A stretch of DNA of 64,000 nucleotides from Spiroplasma phoeniceum (lineage in GTDB: Bacteria > Bacillota_I > Bacilli_A > Mycoplasmatales > Mycoplasmataceae), in contig CP110830.1 of the NCBI GenBank assembly GCA_026239495.1, forward strand, positions 1,054,001 through 1,118,000, given 5' to 3'. The notes under the pieces were generated by a model. The model was given only the letters and a program-made list of their open reading frames with translations. It was not told the origin of the DNA and did not search any database. Both the position numbers and the translations under genes were made by a program. Positions 4,926 to 62,853 of the stretch are shown here, piece by piece. How positions within the stretch are numbered: the stretch's first letter is position 1; each line of letters opens with the position of its first letter.

Positions 4926-4954
4926 ATTTTTATATTAAAAAACATAAATTTATT

Positions 4955-5093
4955 TGCATTATTCATCGGATAGTATCTTTAAATTTAGAATTTTTATCAT
5001 AAAAACAGATATTATTCTGTTTTCCCTACACAAAATAAACGATATTTTTATAAATTTCCTTTTAAATAAAGATATTATCCAACGAATAATGCA
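4955..5093. repeat. short inverted-repeat element (TGCATTATTC family), copy 1
   Basis: A 139-bp segment bounded by ~28-bp imperfect inverted repeats: TGCATTATTCATCGGATA at the left and the complement of TGCATTATTCGTTGGATA at the right. A second pair with almost the same ends but a different interior lies at 62587-62760. No protein signal lies inside. A minus-strand TTG-initiated ORF crosses it but is not credible. Confidence 0.6.
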
Positions 5094-5202
5094 GCCCGTA
5101 AAACTTAATATTTTTTGATGCTTAAAGATGGATAACCCATCTATGGCACGAAGTCTTAAAGAAAGTGTGAAAGCGACTGGATTTATTCTCCTATTTATTT
5201 CT

Positions 5203-5469
5203 TTAATTCTCGACAATATTAATCACTTGTGAAATGTCAGAGCGCGTGTTTTTTGCTTGTTTTCATAAAAAGAGTGATGTTAAACCAAAAAAAATATTGG
5301 ACACCAAAAAAACAAGAGGGATGGCACTCCAAAAGGTTATTTTCTTTATATAAAGTTGTCTAGGGATGTATGAAGCGTAATTAATAACTGGGTAAATTTG
5401 TTTTACTTCCGTAGGAGTATAAACTCTGTTTAAATATAGAATTTTAGTATTGCCATCACTCACCCACAA
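5203..5469 (-). CDS. small single-pass membrane protein, unknown
   Basis: An 88-residue ORF starting TTG (MWVSDGNTK...), running through one in-frame TGA (Trp) to TAA at 5203-5205. It has one clear membrane segment (roughly residues 46-68, rich in Ile, Leu, Val, Phe) preceded by basic residues and followed by the polar tail KQAKNTRSD. A frameshifted homologue lies on the plus strand at about 62220-62477, so the block is a repeated unit, possibly phage- or plasmid-derived. A TTG start is unusual. A short hairpin (CCAC...GTGG) covers the start region. Function unknown. Confidence 0.45.
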
Positions 5470-5596
5470 AGTGGGGTGGATGGCGAATTAAGCTAATTAA
5501 ATCAAAATACAAATATTCTTACTAAATATCAAAATATTAACCAACAAAGGGATTTTCTGTTTATTTAAAAAAATAAAAAGAAAGGAATAAAATATT

Positions 5597-6024
5597 ATGC
5601 AAAAATATAAAAGTAAATATATCAATAAAACTTGAAATGAAATAACAACATCATTTGATTTAGTTAATTGTAAGCCCGTTGATTGTCGTATTTCGCACCA
5701 TAAAAATCATTATGATTTACAACGTTTAGAATGAGCAAAGATGTATTTAAATTTATTTGAAGATAAATGAGATGTTATTAACTCATATATGCAACATTAC
5801 AAAATTAACGATATTTTAGATTTGGCTACAGATGGTTGAAAAATATTACAAATTGATAAAAAAAATAAAACAAATAAATTAAAATATATTATTGCAATTG
5901 ACCCTTCCGTAATTGGCCAAACTGGTATTATTATTTATAATGTTTTGCAAAATAAAATAATTAATAATATTACCTTTCATTCTAAAAATGAAGATGAAGC
6001 AATAAATAATATGTATTTAATATT
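5597..6024 (+). pseudogene. plectrovirus gene with RuvC/RNase H-like segment, cut by IS5-like element
   Basis: ATG at 5597 after an AAAGGAAT site. The first 142 codons read through in the mycoplasma code (several TGA=Trp) and match the broken copy at 1543. After about residue 95 the sequence YIIAIDPSVIGQTGIIIYN resembles the first beta strand and acidic residue of RNase H-fold resolvases (D followed by P and TG). That is a motif-level inference. The IS element at 6025 removes the rest; reading continues into it to a TAA at 6074. No function can be claimed for the fragment. Confidence 0.55.
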
Positions 6025-7094
6025 AGACTTCTTTCGATACCTGGTTTTATTATTAAAATATTATTATAAAATATAATTTATGAGGATATTAAATTATGAA
6101 ATTTGATGAATTTAAAAATATTAATGATAAAGAATGATTAAGATTAACAGGAATAAAACAAGATATTTTTAATAAAATGTTAAATATTTTACAAGTAGCT
6201 GAAATAGAAAAATTTAAAAAAGGCGGCAAAGCTAATAAATTATCACTAGAAAATCGATTATTGATGACTTTATCGTATTGACGAGAATATCGAACTTATT
6301 TTCATCTTGAAAAAAATTTCGGAATTAGTGAAGCTAATTGTTATCGCAATATCAAGTGAATTGAAGATATTTTAATTAAACACCCTGATTTTCAGCAAGT
6401 TGCTGGTAAAAAAGCACTAATAAATGATTATTTTAATGATAAAACTATTATTATTGATGCTACCGAAACCCCAATCCAACGCCCAAAAAAAGACAAAAAC
6501 AATCTTATTCTGGTAAAAAGAAAAAACACACTATTAAAACACAAGTAATTATCGAACAAGAAACCAAAAAAATTATTGCAACAATTTTTTCACTTGGAAA
6601 AAAACATGATTATGCTTTATTTAAAGAATCAAAAATATCAATTTTAAAAAATACCAAATTAATAGTTGATAGTGGTTATCAAGGAATACAAAAAATTCAC
6701 AATAATGTTATAATGCCCACAAAGAAAACTAAGAAAAAACATTTAAATAAAGAACAAAAACAACATAATAGACTAGTTTCAAAAATAAGAATTATTATTG
6801 AAAATATTTTTGCTATTCTTAAAAAATTTAAAATTATTACAGAAAAATATCGTAATCGAAGAAAACGATTTAGTTTAAGATTTAATTTAATTGCTTCAAT
6901 TTATAATTTACAATTATTATAGTTATCATAAAAGATTTATTTAAAATTAACAAATTTGAATAATAAAATAATTTTTCGTTGTGGCAAAATATTAAATTTT
7001 TAAATAAAAGACATAATTAATTAAAATTATAATTTTATATTAACCCCTTTTTACAAATATTTGAAATTATTTTAATGGGTTATGCAAGAAGTCT
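6025..7094 (+). mobile_element. IS5-family type A copy, complete, TSD ATT
   Basis: A 1070-bp element with ends AGACTTCTTTCGATACC and GCAAGAAGTCT and ATT on each side (6022-6024, 7095-7097). Left flank is a plectrovirus gene, right flank the chromosomal rimI fragment, so the element sits on a phage/chromosome junction. Its transposase shows no stop or indel beyond the expected frameshift and it may be functional. Confidence 0.92.
6096..6922 (+). CDS. IS5-family transposase (type A), two frames joined by -1 frameshift
   Basis: The first frame starts MKFDEFKNINDKEW at 6096 and would end at a TAA soon after the slippery run; the second frame carries the rest to TAG at 6920-6922. They overlap at CCAAAAAAAG (A7 at 6485-6491), where a -1 slip on A AAA AAA joins them into about 275 residues. 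The DDE catalytic residues are visible: D in IIIDATETP, D in LIVDSGYQG, and the R(3)E(6)K signature of IS4/IS5 enzymes in RIIIENIFAILK. It is DNA cut-and-paste machinery acting on the AGACTTCTTGC ends. All in-frame TGA codons are Trp. This is one of three copies in the window with no visible disabling lesion. Confidence 0.88.
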
Positions 7095-17375: not shown

Positions 17376-18591
17376 AGACTTCTTGCATAACCCATTAAAA
17401 TAATTTCAAATATTTGTAAAAAGACACTAATAGAAAAATATAATTTTAATTAATTATGTTTTTTATTTAAAAATTTAATATTTTTCCACAACAAAAAATG
17501 AATTTATTATTTAAATGGTAATAAGAAAAAAATTTAGGTTTTGGTATAAAAATTATTCTTTATTTTAAATATATTTCTAAAACACTGATAAATCAACCTT
17601 TTAAAAATTTATCTAATTATTTTATTTATATTTTTTATAAAACCTAAGCTTTTGTAATACTATCATTTAAATTCTTTAATTTTAAATAAATCTTCTATGC
17701 TAACTGCAAATTATAAATTGAAGCAATTAAATTAAATCTTAAACTAAATCGTTTTCTTCGATTACGATATTTTTCTGTAATAATTTTAAATTTTTTAAGA
17801 ATAGCAAAAATATTTTCAATAATAATTCTTATTTTTGAAACTAGTCTATTATGTTGTTTTTGTTCTTTATTTAAATGTTTTTTCTTAGTTTTCTTTGTGG
17901 GCATTATAACATTATTGTGAATTTTTTGTATTCCTTGATAACCACTATCAACTATTAATTTGGTATTTTTTAAAATTGCGATTTTTGATTCTTTAAATAA
18001 AGCATAATCATTTTTTTCCAAGCGAAAAACTTGTTGCAATAATTTTTTTGGTTTCTTGTTCGATAATTACTTGTGTTTTAATAGTGTGTTTTTTCTTTTT
18101 ACCAGAATAAGATTGTTTTTGTCTTTTTTTGGGCGTTGGATTGGGGCTTCGGTAGCATCAATAATAATAGTTTTATCATTAAAATAATCATTTATTAGTG
18201 CTTTTTTACCAGCAACTTGCTGAAAATCAGGGTGTTTAATTAAAATATCTTCAATTCACTTGATATTGCGATAACAATTAGCTTCACTAATTCCGAAATT
18301 TTTTTCCAAGATGAAAATAAGTTCGATATTCTCGTCAATACGATAAAGTCATCAATAATCGATTTTCTAGTGATAATTTATTAGCTTTGCCACCTTTTTT
18401 AAATTTTTCTATTTCAGCTACTTGTAAAATATTTAACATTTTATTAAAAATATCTTGTTTTATTCCTGTTAATCTTAATCATTCTTTATCATTAATATTT
18501 TTAAATTCATCAAATTTCATAATTTAATATCCTCATAAATTATATTTTATAATAATATTTTAATAATAAAACCAGGTATCGCAAGAAGTCT
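17376..18591 (-). mobile_element. IS5-family A/B hybrid carrying a small element
   Basis: The minus-strand gene has type A sequence at its N-terminus (FDEFKNINDKEW, GIKQDIF) and middle and the type B right end. That end is interrupted by the 148-bp small element at 17517-17664. Outer flanks are AAT (left) and ATT (right), again discordant. An inserted T in the KNFGI region and a missing base at KKHDYA disrupt the transposase. Confidence 0.8.
17517..17664. mobile_element. small non-autonomous element (GGTAGTA family), copy 1, 8-bp TSD
   Basis: 148 bp with ends GGTAATAAG... and ...ACTATC. The two ends form imperfect inverted repeats around TTAGGTTTT. ATTTAAAT is duplicated exactly at 17509-17516 and 17665-17672 inside an IS5-like right end; the uninterrupted site is visible in other IS copies. 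No ORF. Confidence 0.88.
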
Positions 18592-18835: not shown

Positions 18836-18986
18836 GGTAGTAAGAAAAGGGTTGAGGTTTTGGTATAAAAAGTATTTTTTTAATGTTATTGATGAATTTA
18901 AAACACTAATAAATCAGGATTTTTAAAAATTTATCCAATTATTTTATTTATATTTTTTATAAAACCTCAACTTTTGTAATGCTATC
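18836..18986. mobile_element. small non-autonomous element (GGTAGTA family), copy 2, 8-bp TSD
   Basis: 151 bp, second subfamily (TTGAGGTTTTGG end), inserted in the transposase gene of an IS5-like copy with AAAAATAT duplicated exactly on both sides (18828-18835, 18987-18994). No coding capacity. Confidence 0.88.
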
Positions 18987-19424: not shown

Positions 19425-19572
19425 GATAGTATTACAAAAACTTATATTTTATAAAAAAATATAAATAAAATAATTAGATAACTTTTTAAAAGGTTTAGTT
19501 ATCAGTGTTTTAGAAATATATTTAAAATAAAGAATAATTTTTATACCAAAACCTAAATTTTTTTCTTACTAG
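19425..19572. mobile_element. small non-autonomous element (GGTAGTA family), copy 3, diverged
   Basis: Starts GATAGTATTAC and ends TTCTTACTA, with the usual internal order (TTATCAGTGTTTTAGAAATATA). The ends are slightly mutated and no exact 8-bp duplication can be made out, suggesting an older insertion. Confidence 0.75.
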
Positions 19573-19590
19573 CTAAATTTTTGTTTGTTG

Positions 19591-48680: not shown

Positions 48681-49581
48681 AGATTGTAAATGCAAGTGCA
48701 ACAAATCAAGTCAGAAATGAACATCTAAAATAAAAATTATGTTAAAATTTTATTAAAAAATGTTCTTTTTATTTTATTTATTTCAAATTTAATAATTGTT
48801 TGCAGAACGAATATTATTTGAACCATAATAAATTGAATTTTAACTAGGGCTAATTCTTCATGATTGACTACCATCTTCATTATCACTAACAAAAGTGACT
48901 ATTATCTGTGTTATATCTATATTCGGGTTGCATTAACTTAATCTAGTCAGAATTATTTTGCAATTATTAATGGGTAGTTCTACTAAGTTATGGTTTGTAA
49001 TTACAGTTGATAGCGAAAATTGCGATAGAATAAGGGCTGTTGACTTTCAATTTGTCTTTTATTTTTAATATTTTTTGATTAATAGAAACTTTCAACAATT
49101 ACCATTGGTATGATCTTTACAATAATTATTATTGTACTTAACAAACTTAGTAATTTATTCATATCTACATCTATTTCTTTCATTTATGCTTATAGTTAAC
49201 TATCTAAAATGTAATATTATTTTTAAATTTTGTATTAATTAAATAGTAACACATTTTATAAAAATTAATAGAATATATTGTTCGTCTTTTTTTACACAGT
49301 ATTGATAACATTAGGTAGTAATAAAAAAGTTTAGGTTTTGGTATAAAAATTATTCTTTATTTTAAATATATTTCTAAAACACTGATAAATCAACCTTTTA
49401 AAAATTTATCTAATTATTTTATTTATATTTTTTATAAAACCTAAGCTTTTGTAATACTATCTAACATCTTTTCCATACTTAGTTACTAAGGACCGCAAAA
49501 TAAAATAATGTTTTCTTTCCATTAAAAAATTAACTCCTTTCTAGGTTGATTTGTTACACTTCATATTGCATTTTACAACTT
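48681..49581 (-). other. decayed mobile-element or lipoprotein remnant region
   Basis: Both edges carry related inverted sequences (AGATTGTAAATGCAAGTG at the left; the inverse of AAGTTGTAAAATGCAATATG at the right), similar to the ends of 34008-34207. Inside, minus-strand pieces such as MERKHYFILRSLVTKYGKDV (start 49522 after AAGGAG) and a hydrophobic LLSLLSTIIIIVKIIPMVI are open only briefly, with many stops. The small element at 49314-49461 is inserted. Identity cannot be decided. Confidence 0.35.
49314..49461. mobile_element. small non-autonomous element (GGTAGTA family), copy 4
   Basis: 148 bp, first subfamily, ends GGTAGTAAT... and ...ACTATC. Flanking octamers TAACATTA and TAACATCT agree at six of eight positions, an imperfect duplication suggesting later mutation. 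Confidence 0.82.
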
Positions 49582-56771: not shown

Positions 56772-58004
56772 AGCCTTCTTTTATAACCTAATCTAATTAT
56801 TTTAAAATTTCTATAAAATATTTTTAAATTAAAATAGAAATTATAGGAGATTAAAATTATGAAATTTGATAAATTTAATTTTATTAATGATAAAGAATTA
56901 TTGCGATTAACCGGAGCAAAAAAAGCTACTTTTAATAAAATGTTAAATATTTTACAAGTAGCTGAAATAGAAAAAATTTAAAAAAGGTGGCAAAACTAAT
57001 AAATTATCGCTATAAAATCGGCTACTAATGACTTTATCGTATTGACGAGAATATCGGACTTATTTTCATCTTGCTAAAAGTTTTGATATTAGTGAATCTA
57101 GTTGTTATCGCAATATCAAGTGAATTGAAGATATTTTAATTAAACACTCTGATTTTCAACAACTAGCTGGTAAAAAATCACTAATAAATGATTATTTTAA
57201 TGATAAAACTATTATTATTGATGTTACCGAAACCCCAATCCAACGCCCCAAAAAAGACAAAAACAATCTTATTCTGGTAAAAAGAAAAAACACACCATTA
57301 AAACACAAGTAATTATCCAACAAGAAACCAAAAAAATTATTGCAACAAGTTTTTCGCTTGGAAAAAAACATGATTATGCTTTATTTAAAGAATCAAAAAT
57401 CTCAATTTTAAAAAATACCAAATTAATAGTTGGTAGTAGTTATCAAGGAATTCAAAAAATTCACAATAATGTTCTAATACCTACAAAAAAAACAAAGAAA
57501 ACCCCTTTAAATAAAGTACAAAAACAACGTAATAGAATAGTTTTAAAAATGAGAATTATTATTGAAAATATTTTTGCTATTCTTAAAAAATTTAAAATTA
57601 TTACAGAAAAATATCGTAATCGAAGAAAACGATTTAGTTTAAGATTTAATTTAATTGCTTCAATTTATAATTTGCAGTTAGCATAGAAGATTTATTTAAA
57701 ATTAAAGAATTTAAATGATAGTATTACAAAAGCTTAGGTTTTATAAAAAATATAAATAAAATAATTAGATAAATTTTTAAAAGGTTGATTTATCAGTGTT
57801 TTAGAAATATATTTAAAATAAAGAATAATTTTTATACCAAAACCTAAATTTTTTTCTTACTACCATTTAAATAATAAATTCATTTTTTGTTGTGGAAAAA
57901 TATTAAATTTTTAAATAAAAAACATAATTAATTAAAATTATATTTTTCTATTAGTGTCTTTTTACAAATATTTGCAATTTTTTAATAGGTTATGCAAGAA
58001 GTCT
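56772..58004 (+). mobile_element. IS5-family type B copy, right arm of composite, carrying a small element
   Basis: Left end mutated to AGCCTTCTTTTATAACC exactly as at 16486; right end GCAAGAAGTCT at 58004. Contains the small element 57717-57864 near its right end, at the same ATTTAAAT site as in the 17376-18591 copy. The transposase has stops (GAAAAAATTTAAAAAAGG region and LSL-stop-NRL). Confidence 0.87.
57717..57864. mobile_element. small non-autonomous element (GGTAGTA family), copy 5, 8-bp TSD
   Basis: 148 bp from GATAGTATTAC to CTTACTACC with ATTTAAAT exactly duplicated at 57709-57716 and 57865-57872. Because it sits at the homologous site of the composite's right arm, it was most likely copied along with it (compare 17517-17664). 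Confidence 0.88.
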
Positions 58005-58273: not shown

Positions 58274-58425
58274 GGTAGTAAGAAAAAGGTTGAGGTTTTG
58301 GTATAAAAATTATTTTTTTTACTATTATTGATGAATTTAAAACAATAATAAATCAGGATTTTTAAAAATTTATCCAATTATTTTATTTATATTTTTTATA
58401 AAACCTCAAATTTTGTAATGCTATC
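58274..58425. mobile_element. small non-autonomous element (GGTAGTA family), copy 6, 8-bp TSD
   Basis: 152 bp, second subfamily (TTGAGGTTTTGG), with AATTCTCT exactly duplicated at 58266-58273 and 58426-58433, inside plectrovirus sequence. Confidence 0.9.
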
Positions 58426-58825: not shown

Positions 58826-59945
58826 TTTCCTTTCTCTTTTTTTTGCTTTTAAATTTTCTTTCAAAATATCAATATCAAACAATTCTAAGAGTTGTTTGTT
58901 ATTTAATTTTGATATATCTTTTCAAAAATATTATTTTTTATTAACAACTTCATCATTTTTTAAATCACGGACAAAACTTAATCAATGACTATCATATTTA
59001 TTGGCAAATTCAAGCGGAATAATTATCTTAAAAAACCGAATTCATAATCCAACATCCGACTTATTTTTTGCTCATTTACCTTCTGCTGTTCGTTCTACTG
59101 ATTTTGTTTTTCAAATTTCATAATCTGTAATATATTGGAAAATACCAATTCGCATAACAAAACTACGATTAAAGATATTACTTAATTTTGACTTAACGGG
59201 TTTTTTTCAATGAAATCGGAACAATAATACCTCTTGCTAAATGACGAATATTATTTCACATCATACCCTCGCGCTGTACGGTAAAAATCGCTCTATTTTT
59301 AAAATGTCTTGCTAAAACAATCCACACACTTTTACCACCATGAAATTTTTTAACTTCGTGAGGACTAGTTCCATAAATATATAAAAAAACTCTCATCAAA
59401 CAAAATTAAACTATCATCAGGGGGACTAATTTAGTTCTATCAGTAAAATCTAAGTTATTAAAAGTTAAAAGTTTTATTGAATAATCTTCGATTGGATAAT
59501 TACTATAAATTTTCGATAGCATTACAAAAGTTGAGGTTTTATAAAAAATATAAATAAAATAATTGGATAAATTTTTAAAAATCCTGATTTATTAGTGTTT
59601 TAAATTCATCAATAATAGTAAAAAAAATAATTTTTATACCAAAACCTCAACCTTTTTCTTACTACCCAATTTCTTCGTTAAAATTTTTATAGCTTTTGAT
59701 AGAAAAGTTAAAAGCAATGTTTTACCAGTTCCTAATTTACCAATAATTACTGATAAAGGATTGTCCCGAATAAAGTAAACTAAACGAAAAAAAATTAACT
59801 GATAAAAAACATTTTTTCAAACTCACCAAACAAAATATACACATTGTAAAGCAAATGATAGTCAAAATACTAAACCAGTATAATTTAATGAAATTATTCA
59901 AAGTAATAAATCAATTAAAATAAACAAAACCATTGAACCATTAAT
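58826..59945 (-). pseudogene. plectrovirus Zot-like packaging ATPase, disrupted
   Basis: Minus-strand fragments show a membrane-proximal hydrophobic part, the P-loop SVIIGKLGTGKTLLLTF (Walker A GKLGTGKT), then, after the small element at 59515-59666, DDSLILFDESFFIYLW (Walker B). Next come SPHEVKKFHGGKSVWIVLAR, YEIWKTKSVERTAEGK and LELFDIDILKENLK. Several frameshifts; the 5' end is cut at 59946. Zot/pI proteins power extrusion of filamentous phages. Confidence 0.75.
59515..59666. mobile_element. small non-autonomous element (GGTAGTA family), copy 7
   Basis: 152 bp, second subfamily in inverted orientation to copy 6, interrupting the Zot-like gene between its Walker A and Walker B regions. Flanking octamers do not match exactly. 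Confidence 0.85.
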
Positions 59946-62030: not shown

Positions 62031-62586
62031 ATGGATAAGCACGTAGCATTAATTCTTGTAATTTACTTTCAATTTTTTTATTTCATTTTTTCATCAAATA
62101 TTTCCCTTTCTGTAAAAAACATAATATTCCTTTATTGGTAATATTTTGATATTTAGTAAATAATTTATTTTAGTATTTAATTACTTCGCTGCCCGCTTCA
62201 CTTCGGGGGTGAGCGGGAGTGCGGATAGGATATTTTGATAGATTTTTTACCCACATACGGGAAATAAACAAAAAAATAGTTTACCCAGTTATTAATTACG
62301 TTTCATCCATCCCTAGACAACTTTTATATAAAAAAAATAACTTTTTGGAGTTCCAAGCCTCTTGTTTTTTTAGTGTCCGATATTGTTTTTTTCGATTTAA
62401 CAAAACTCTTTTTATGAAAACAAGCCAAAAAAACACATGCTCTGACATTTCGCGAGTGATTAATCTTGCCGATAATTAAATAAATAAATAGTAGTAAATC
62501 CAATCACTCCCACAATTTCTTTAAGGCTTCGTGCAATAGATGAGCTGTTCATCTTTAAGCATCAAAAAATATTAATTTTTAGGGGC
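62031..62586 (+). pseudogene. decayed copy of the 5094-5583 block
   Basis: Plus-strand sequence matches the minus strand of 5094-5583. VYPVINYVSSIPRQLLYKK, a frame slip in the TTTTTGGAG run, and SDISRVINLADN correspond to the small membrane protein at 5203-5469. Upstream is a GC-rich hairpin (CCCGCTTCAC facing GGTGAGCGGG, about 62190-62216). A stem-loop at 62538-62554 is conserved with a compensatory change relative to 5126-5142. Confidence 0.5.
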
Positions 62587-62760
62587 TGCATTATTCATTG
62601 GATAATATCTTTATTAAAAATGATATTATTATTATTATTAGTAGTTGTTAAGCCGAAAAAATATAATAAATCACAGAAAGGAAATTATAAAAATTAACTA
62701 ATTTGTAAGGAAAAATAGGTTAATTTTTAATTTTAAAGATACTATCTGATGAATAATGCA
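62587..62760. repeat. short inverted-repeat element (TGCATTATTC family), copy 2
   Basis: 174 bp between TGCATTATTCATTGGATAAT and the inverse of TGCATTATTCATCAGATAGT. Ends match those of 4955-5093 while the interior differs in length and sequence. Confidence 0.6.
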
Positions 62761-62762
62761 AA

Positions 62763-62792
62763 TAAAAAAATCGCTCTAATAAGCGATTGCTT
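62763..62792 (-). terminator. Rho-independent terminator on the minus strand
   Basis: Stem AATCGCT/AGCGATT with a six-base loop; the plus-strand A7 run at its left gives a T tract on the minus strand. Confidence 0.6.
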
Positions 62793-62807
62793 TAATTTAT
62801 ATTTAAT

Positions 62808-62853
62808 TACTTTATTTATATTTTTGTAAAACCTAAGCTTTTTTCCGACTACC
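62808..62853. repeat. partial end of the GGTAGTA small element
   Basis: TTTATTTATATTTTTGTAAAACCTAAGC followed by CGACTACC matches about 45 bases of one end of the family (compare 17620-17664), with mutations; the rest is absent. Confidence 0.55.

What the first reader, a model, noticed from the sequence alone, without database searches (positions are those of the whole stretch)
17517..17664. Family of ~150-bp gene-free elements with ~29-bp inverted ends and perfect 8-bp target duplications
Seven near-full copies (17517, 18836, 19425, 49314, 57717, 58274, 59515) and a fragment (62808) share ends around GGTAGTA...TTAGGTTTT and fall into two subfamilies (TTAGG and TTGAGG). Exact 8-bp duplications are seen at 17517 (ATTTAAAT), 18836 (AAAAATAT), 57717 (ATTTAAAT) and 58274 (AATTCTCT), with uninterrupted sites readable in homologous IS copies. 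They insert into IS elements and phage genes. The ends differ from the IS1595 and IS5-like ends here, so the mobilising transposase is not in the window. Conserved internal sequence and the AT-rich symmetrical ends also allow a folded transcript. I do not know a description of this family.
Basis: partly seen in the sequence, partly recalled or inferred. Interest (0 to 1): 0.82.

Follow-up and report, generated by a model that had tools for sequence, protein, structure and literature searches.

The report
Tiny hitchhikers of a jumping prophage
The 150-base gene-free repeats are miniature jumping DNAs that share the ends of a 16-kb prophage in the same Spiroplasma genome, and they are most likely moved by that prophage's own transposase, which makes the prophage a Mu-like jumping virus with natural parasites.

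Summary
The genome holds 68 full copies (65 independent insertions), not seven: 52 of the TTGAGG type (33 identical to the base, 49 with an exact 8-10-bp target duplication) and 16 of the older TTAGG type (all different, 7 with a duplication). They are miniature inverted-repeat elements (MITEs). It has the same end motif (GGTAG...TTGAGGTTTT), five copies flanked by exact 8-bp duplications, and an intact 440-aa DDE transposase gene beside its right end. That protein passes the NCBIfam cut-off for the Mycoplasma-ICE transposase (Mutator superfamily). Other Spiroplasma species, including S. poulsonii and S. phoeniceum, carry relatives of the prophage. A related phage sequenced from S. poulsonii particles has a 40% identical transposase, and its DNA runs end-to-end across a 5-bp spacer, as expected of a circular transposition intermediate. 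A second Spiroplasma species has its own 172-bp MITE family with the same ends. The window "fragment" at 62808 is the end of a decayed prophage copy, not a MITE. Mobilisation in trans is inferred, not shown experimentally. New variant of a known kind.

The parts
17517..17664 (+). MITE, TTAGG (e1) subfamily, 148 bp; duplication ATTTAAAT; inside an IS
   Evidence: shares flanks with 57717, so the same insertion event
18836..18986 (+). MITE, TTGAGG (e2) subfamily, 151 bp; duplication AAAAATAT; one of 33 identical copies
   Evidence: uninterrupted IS site found
19425..19573 (-). MITE, TTAGG subfamily, outer end altered (ACTAG); duplication 7/8
49314..49461 (+). MITE, TTAGG subfamily; duplication 6/8 (TAACATTA/TAACATCT)
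57717..57864 (-). MITE, TTAGG subfamily; duplication ATTTAAAT; copy of the 17517 insertion
58274..58425 (+). MITE, TTGAGG subfamily, 152 bp; duplication AATTCTCT
59515..59666 (-). MITE, TTGAGG subfamily; no duplication left
62114..62853 (-).
   Evidence: 84% to prophage bases 1-728
4949..6025 (+). Decayed fragment of the partner prophage (prophage bases 89-1187)
   Evidence: 88% identity
1536..1822 (+). Decayed fragment of the partner prophage (prophage bases 753-1038)
   Evidence: 86% identity

Best explanation
The repeats are MITEs moved in trans by the DDE transposase of a resident ~16-kb transposable prophage. The prophage integrates by transposition at AT-rich sites with 8-bp duplications; its transposase (440 aa, Mutator superfamily, Mycoplasma-ICE/ISLre2 type) is coded beside its right end. 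It is proposed to recognise the terminal GGTAG and the TTGAGGTTTT box at each end, join the ends as a circle with a short spacer, and insert the circle elsewhere. A MITE keeps only about 26-60 bp of such ends around a gene-free middle, so any cell with an active prophage moves it. Shown: MITE transposition, shared end motif, prophage transposition, intact transposase gene beside the shared end, recent burst. Inferred: that this enzyme acts on the MITE, and the circular intermediate in this genome.
For: 56/68 copies with exact 8-10-bp duplications at unrelated sites and 45/56 uninterrupted sites. MITE right end aligns 51/62 (S. poulsonii) and 45/53 (own) without gaps to the prophage left end, far above shuffles (scores 40 and 37 against maxima 20 and 21); MITE left end 34/40 to the S. 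poulsonii prophage left end (26 against 17). Five own prophage copies with exact 8-bp duplications AAAAAAAC, AAGAGTTT, AAAATTAT, TAATTTCT, AGAATTCT and one in S. poulsonii (TTGTTAAC). Transposase beside the right end: 224 bits to NF046004 (cut-off 162) and 90 to ISLre2; 16/20 homologues hit UPF0236. Only this transposase type is adjacent to GGTAG/TTGAGG ends; the 41% identical UPF0236-type genes in the genome sit by GGTTGTA/AAGGG ends. In this genome the intact, near-identical transposases belong to TTGAGG-ended prophages, and the young 33-identical MITEs are TTGAGG; the TTAGG-ended prophage at 2088178 has a transposase with 9 TAA/TAG stops, and TTAGG MITEs are old. A related species has a second MITE family (at least 17 full copies, 172 bp) with the same ends and a different middle. 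Particle-derived phage MaM-2019a: transposase 40% identical, and ends joined head-to-tail with 5-bp spacers ATAAT and ATTTT in two records.
Against: No direct evidence that the transposase binds or moves the MITE. The MITE left end is not significantly similar to this prophage's own right end outside the GGTAG and TTGAGG boxes (score 14, shuffled maximum 20); both MITE ends look like prophage left ends. Across species the TTAGG/TTGAGG end type does not track transposase sequence, so the box is not shown to be a specificity determinant. Portal and capsid assignments rest on gene order and the sister phage; AlphaFold models were useless (pLDDT 32 and 38).
Confidence: 0.85

Rival explanations
1. 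The MITEs are moved by a separate, ordinary insertion sequence (for example an IS256- or ISLre2-type IS) with the same ends, and the prophage merely shares those ends.
For: ISLre2-type transposases are usually on ISs (PMC3942029); 47 matches to this transposase family, many broken, lie in the genome.
Against: No IS256 transposase (PF00872: 0 matches). Every matching end followed up that lacked a MITE partner belonged to a prophage, an interrupted or partial MITE, or a decayed prophage. The intact 440-aa type was found only in prophages.
Confidence: 0.08
2. The copies are a structured RNA or regulatory hairpin (attenuator or terminator) spread by segmental duplication.
For: The TTGAGG element folds better than shuffles on one strand (z = -5.3), because its ends are complementary.
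Against: The same strand of the TTAGG subfamily does not (z = -0.03); the TTGAGG interior without the ends is average (z 0.5-0.6); no Rfam match; flanks unrelated and 8 bp duplicated; the paired TTAGG/TTGAGG end boxes also occur at prophage ends 16 kb apart, where they cannot form an RNA stem.
Confidence: 0.03
3. The MITEs are remnants that moved with an older relative of the prophage and are now immobile.
For: True in part for the TTAGG subfamily: all 16 copies differ, 9 have lost their exact duplication, and the own TTAGG prophage transposase has 9 TAA/TAG stops.
Against: 33 TTGAGG copies are identical to the base at unrelated sites, two sit inside recent prophage copies, and intact transposases are present.
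Confidence: 0.06

Closest known systems
Spiroplasma phage MaM-2019a (OL689226, OL689227; particles from S. poulsonii, Ramirez et al. 2023 as cited in PMC12453411)
   Same: ~19-kb genome with terminase, portal and capsid genes and a UPF0236-type transposase after terL; similar end architecture; joined ends in the record
   Different: Transposase 40% identical, most structural proteins not alignable, other end box (AAGGG or TTGGGG instead of TTGAGG); no MITE described; a third MaM record has an IS30-type transposase instead
Mycoplasma integrative conjugative elements (ICEA and others, p-MULT 5; PMC3942029)
   Same: Same transposase family by curated model (NF046004), gene beside one inverted repeat, 8-9-bp duplications, terminal G/C, near-random insertion
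   Different: Carries a phage module, no conjugation gene found; and has MITE derivatives
ISLre2 / TnGBS (p-MULT 3)
   Same: Related DDE transposase (90 bits), 8-9-bp duplications
   Different: Below the ISLre2 cut-off of 200 bits; no sign of the upstream-of-promoter preference in base counts around 50 sites
Phage Mu and other transposable phages
   Same: Prophage integrates by DDE transposition at many sites
   Different: No MuA-type match found; 8-bp instead of 5-bp duplication (Mu value from general knowledge); ~16-kb genome; likely circle-forming Mutator chemistry
Bacterial MITEs, e.g. of Cardinium (PMC9769881, title and abstract only)
   Same: Short non-autonomous element in many copies in an arthropod symbiont
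   Different: Driver here is a prophage rather than an IS

Membership tests
MITE | Short, no coding capacity, terminal inverted repeats | tested here: met
   148-152 bp, gene-free; imperfect inverted ends sharing GRTAG and the TTGAGG/TTAGG box
MITE | Target-site duplication of constant length at many unrelated sites | tested here: met
   56/68 with 8-10 bp (50 of them 8 bp); permutation maximum 6
MITE | Autonomous partner with matching ends | tested here: met
   Prophage ends
MITE | Mobilised in trans by the partner's transposase | not testable with these tools
   Needs a transposition assay
Mutator-superfamily element (p-MULT 5, Mycoplasma-ICE transposase family) | Transposase above the curated cut-off of NF046004 | tested here: met
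   224 bits against 162
Mutator-superfamily element (p-MULT 5, Mycoplasma-ICE transposase family) | 8-9-bp duplications, 18-39-bp inverted ends, terminal cytosine, transposase beside one end | tested here: met
   criteria from PMC3942029
Mutator-superfamily element (p-MULT 5, Mycoplasma-ICE transposase family) | Circular intermediate with 6-10-bp spacer | tested here: inconclusive
   5-bp spacer junctions in the related phage MaM-2019a only
Mycoplasma ICE | Conjugation genes | tested here: not met
   No conjugation family among the element's main ORFs scanned with Pfam, PHROGs and NCBIfam
ISLre2 family | Above the ISLre2 cut-off; 1-2-kb IS | tested here: not met
   90 bits against 200; element is 16 kb
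Tailed phage (partner element) | Large terminase, portal, capsid | tested here: inconclusive
   Terminase_3 E about 1e-4 in 6/6 homologues, 1.3 bits under the cut-off for the query; remote hit to a phage terminase; same terL-then-transposase arrangement as MaM-2019a and partial similarity to its capsid protein (66-85% over about 97 aa); portal and capsid not proven by fold
Mu-like transposable phage (MuA family) | MuA-type transposase, 5-bp duplication | tested here: not met
   Transposase is Mutator type; duplication 8 bp

The most novel reading that the evidence does not exclude
Spiroplasma hosts a class of transposable temperate phages that arose independently of Mu: they lysogenise with a Mutator-superfamily transposase of the kind otherwise known from Mycoplasma conjugative elements, through a circular joined-ends form that may also be the packaged or packaging-ready DNA, and they repeatedly spawn MITEs that parasitise the phage transposase and ride inside its genome.
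Probability: 0.6. Interest if true: 0.78.

Novelty: new variant of a known kind. Interest (0 to 1): 0.62.

Why it matters
Repetitive, phage-rich Spiroplasma genomes are described, but how their prophages enter the chromosome is largely open. Here the ends, the duplications, the enzyme and a small substrate are all in hand, so the mechanism is directly testable. It joins three things that were separate: phage-like particles of S. poulsonii, the transposase family of Mycoplasma conjugative elements, and a class of MITEs driven by a virus instead of an insertion sequence. MITEs sitting inside prophage copies could travel between cells with the phage. The MITE is also a ready-made 150-bp substrate for transposition assays.

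Tried and rejected
IS256 family as driver (guessed from the 8-10-bp duplications): PF00872 has no match in the genome. A 3.2-kb candidate between two right ends at 1636086 and 1639272: proved to be two separate MITEs. Orphan left or right ends: MITEs interrupted by an IS (L062, L059) or partial copies. The 41% transposases (second prophage type) as driver: their ends are GGTTGTATG...AAGGGTTTT. The idea that the TTAGG and TTGAGG boxes mark two transposase lineages: a tree and region-by-region comparison show no association. AlphaFold for capsid and portal candidates: low confidence, not used. Searches of phage and plasmid records with the MITE: nothing. RNA families: nothing. Literature: no paper found joining Spiroplasma with UPF0236, transposable phage or MITE in the library held; subscription papers, including Ramirez et al. 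2023, could not be read.

Full report
Where it is. The window is bases 1,054,001-1,118,000 of a single-contig 2.18-Mb genome, a Spiroplasma by its relatives (those that could be named are S. poulsonii MSRO_BK and S. phoeniceum P40; TGA read as Trp).

The observation. The seven listed copies are real. Two genome-wide searches and two end-pattern searches gave 68 full-length copies: 52 TTGAGG-type (e2) and 16 TTAGG-type (e1). Of the 52, 33 are identical over 151 bp and 6 more form a second identical set; the 16 TTAGG copies are all different (mean pairwise identity 94.6%). Exact duplications of 8 bp occur in 50 copies, of 9 bp in 5 and of 10 bp in 1; permuting right flanks gives 1.3 on average and 6 at most. 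Only one trio and one pair of copies share 60-bp flanks, which leaves 65 independent insertions. The trio includes window 17517 and 57717, so those two 'ATTTAAAT' duplications are one event copied with its host IS. For 45 of 56 copies an uninterrupted homologous site with a single copy of the duplicated bases was found. Target bases are AT-rich with an AAAATTTT-like tendency and no clear signal outside the duplication. The copies are therefore true transposition products, most of them recent.

The partner. Searching for variants of the end found 12 further ends. Those of the TTGAGG type open a homologous stretch of 15-17 kb. Its other end reads GGTAGTATACATTATTTTGAGGTTTTTAATAAAATTAAG. Five copies are flanked by exact 8-bp duplications: AAAAAAAC (15,844 bp), AAGAGTTT (16,989), AAAATTAT (15,997), TAATTTCT (17,398) and AGAATTCT (about 17.8 kb, with insertions). 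S. poulsonii has the same element with TTGTTAAC (16,640 bp). Two own copies contain a MITE, each with its own duplication.

What the partner codes for (element coordinates in the 15,844-bp copy): a RuvC-like nuclease candidate (weakly similar, 35% over 80 aa, to a MaM-2019a protein annotated so), a run of structural-type genes (408-aa capsid candidate, 534, 309, 416-aa portal candidate, 729 aa), a variable block of lipoprotein or secreted proteins on the other strand, a 578-aa large-terminase candidate (Terminase_3 in all six homologues, best E 8e-5), and a 440-aa transposase 0.2 kb inside the right end. No integrase or conjugation family was found. The transposase scores 224 bits against NF046004 'Mbov_0401 family ICE element transposase-like protein' (cut-off 162) and 90 bits against ISLre2; 16 of 20 homologues hit Pfam UPF0236. 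The acidic residues D169, D257 and E370 are invariant in 20 homologues (their catalytic role is inferred). A 2014 study defined this group as Mutator-superfamily p-MULT 5, then known only from Mycoplasma ICEs, with 8-9-bp duplications, 18-39-bp ends with a terminal cytosine, the gene beside one end, and circular intermediates with 6-10-bp spacers (PMC3942029). The element here meets the end, duplication and gene-position features.

Is it a phage? A phage sequenced from S. poulsonii particles (MaM-2019a, OL689226 and OL689227; particle origin as described in PMC12453411) carries a 40% identical transposase beside its terminase genes, plus portal and capsid genes. Our element shares the terL-then-transposase arrangement, a capsid C-terminal part (66-85% over about 97 aa) and secreted proteins. 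In both MaM records the two ends lie head-to-tail separated by 5 bp...CATACAACC-ATAAT-GGTCGCATGG... and ...TATACGACC-ATTTT-GGTCGTATAA.... The right end of MaM clone P1 is the same as that of the second prophage type in our genome. These records therefore read through a joined-ends molecule, as a circular transposition intermediate would give; assembly of another concatemer is an alternative. A third MaM record has an IS30-type transposase at the same place, which suggests that these phages swap their integration enzyme.

Link between MITE and prophage. The MITE right end matches the prophage left end over about 55-60 bp and the MITE left end matches the S. poulsonii prophage left end over 26-40 bp, all well above shuffles. 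The own intact 440-aa genes are near-identical and lie beside TTGAGG-type right ends, while the gene beside the TTAGG-type right end at 2088178 is broken by nine TAA/TAG stops; this parallels the young TTGAGG and the old TTAGG MITEs. It is a correlation in one genome. In a related species (G175) a different MITE, 172 bp, at least 17 full copies, 6 of 8 checked with exact 8-bp duplications, has the same ends but a different middle. Thus the ends, not the middle, go with mobility, and MITEs probably arose more than once. The alternation TTAGG/TTGAGG is matched at both ends of MITEs and occurs at both left and right prophage ends, which argues against an RNA stem as the cause. However, transposase sequence does not sort by end type across 13 prophage copies, so I do not claim enzyme-end coevolution.

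The window fragment. Bases 62114-62853 are 84% identical to prophage bases 1-728 and end in the TTAGG-type prophage terminus.

Verdict. Observation confirmed; the interpretation as an undescribed family of small transposons is supported and completed by finding the probable driver. What is new, as far as the library held shows, is a prophage as the driver of MITEs and the association of a Mycoplasma-ICE-type transposase with a phage in several Spiroplasma species; the phage-transposase association itself is visible in deposited MaM-2019a annotations. Trans-mobilisation remains to be shown by experiment.

Noticed in passing
L268 (OL689227) about 105-140 and L269 (OL689226) about 100-145: Particle-derived phage records are opened so that the two transposon-like ends are joined with a 5-bp spacer; the record annotation does not mention it.
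   Followed up: partly
L270 (OL689230) 567-1742: A sister phage (MSRO-P1) has an IS30-type transposase where the others have the UPF0236 type: exchange of integration enzyme.
   Followed up: no
L164 (G173:C1:544000-563500): Same phage backbone (terL candidate 78%, 534-aa protein 65%) with a transposase only 30% identical: another likely enzyme swap.
   Followed up: no
L182, L183, L184, L185 (own genome): A second prophage type in the same genome with 41% transposase and right end GGTTGTATGTATTATTTAAGGGTTTT; left ends not located.
   Followed up: partly
L243, L244 against L080 2917-4140: The capsid candidate keeps its first ~315 residues (about 84-89%) but has a different C-terminal part in some relatives; the C-terminal ~97 aa is shared with MaM-2019a: domain exchange.
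   Followed up: no
L063 4888-4980: A defective MITE with right ends on both sides (GATAGCATTACAAAAGTTGA at each end).
   Followed up: no
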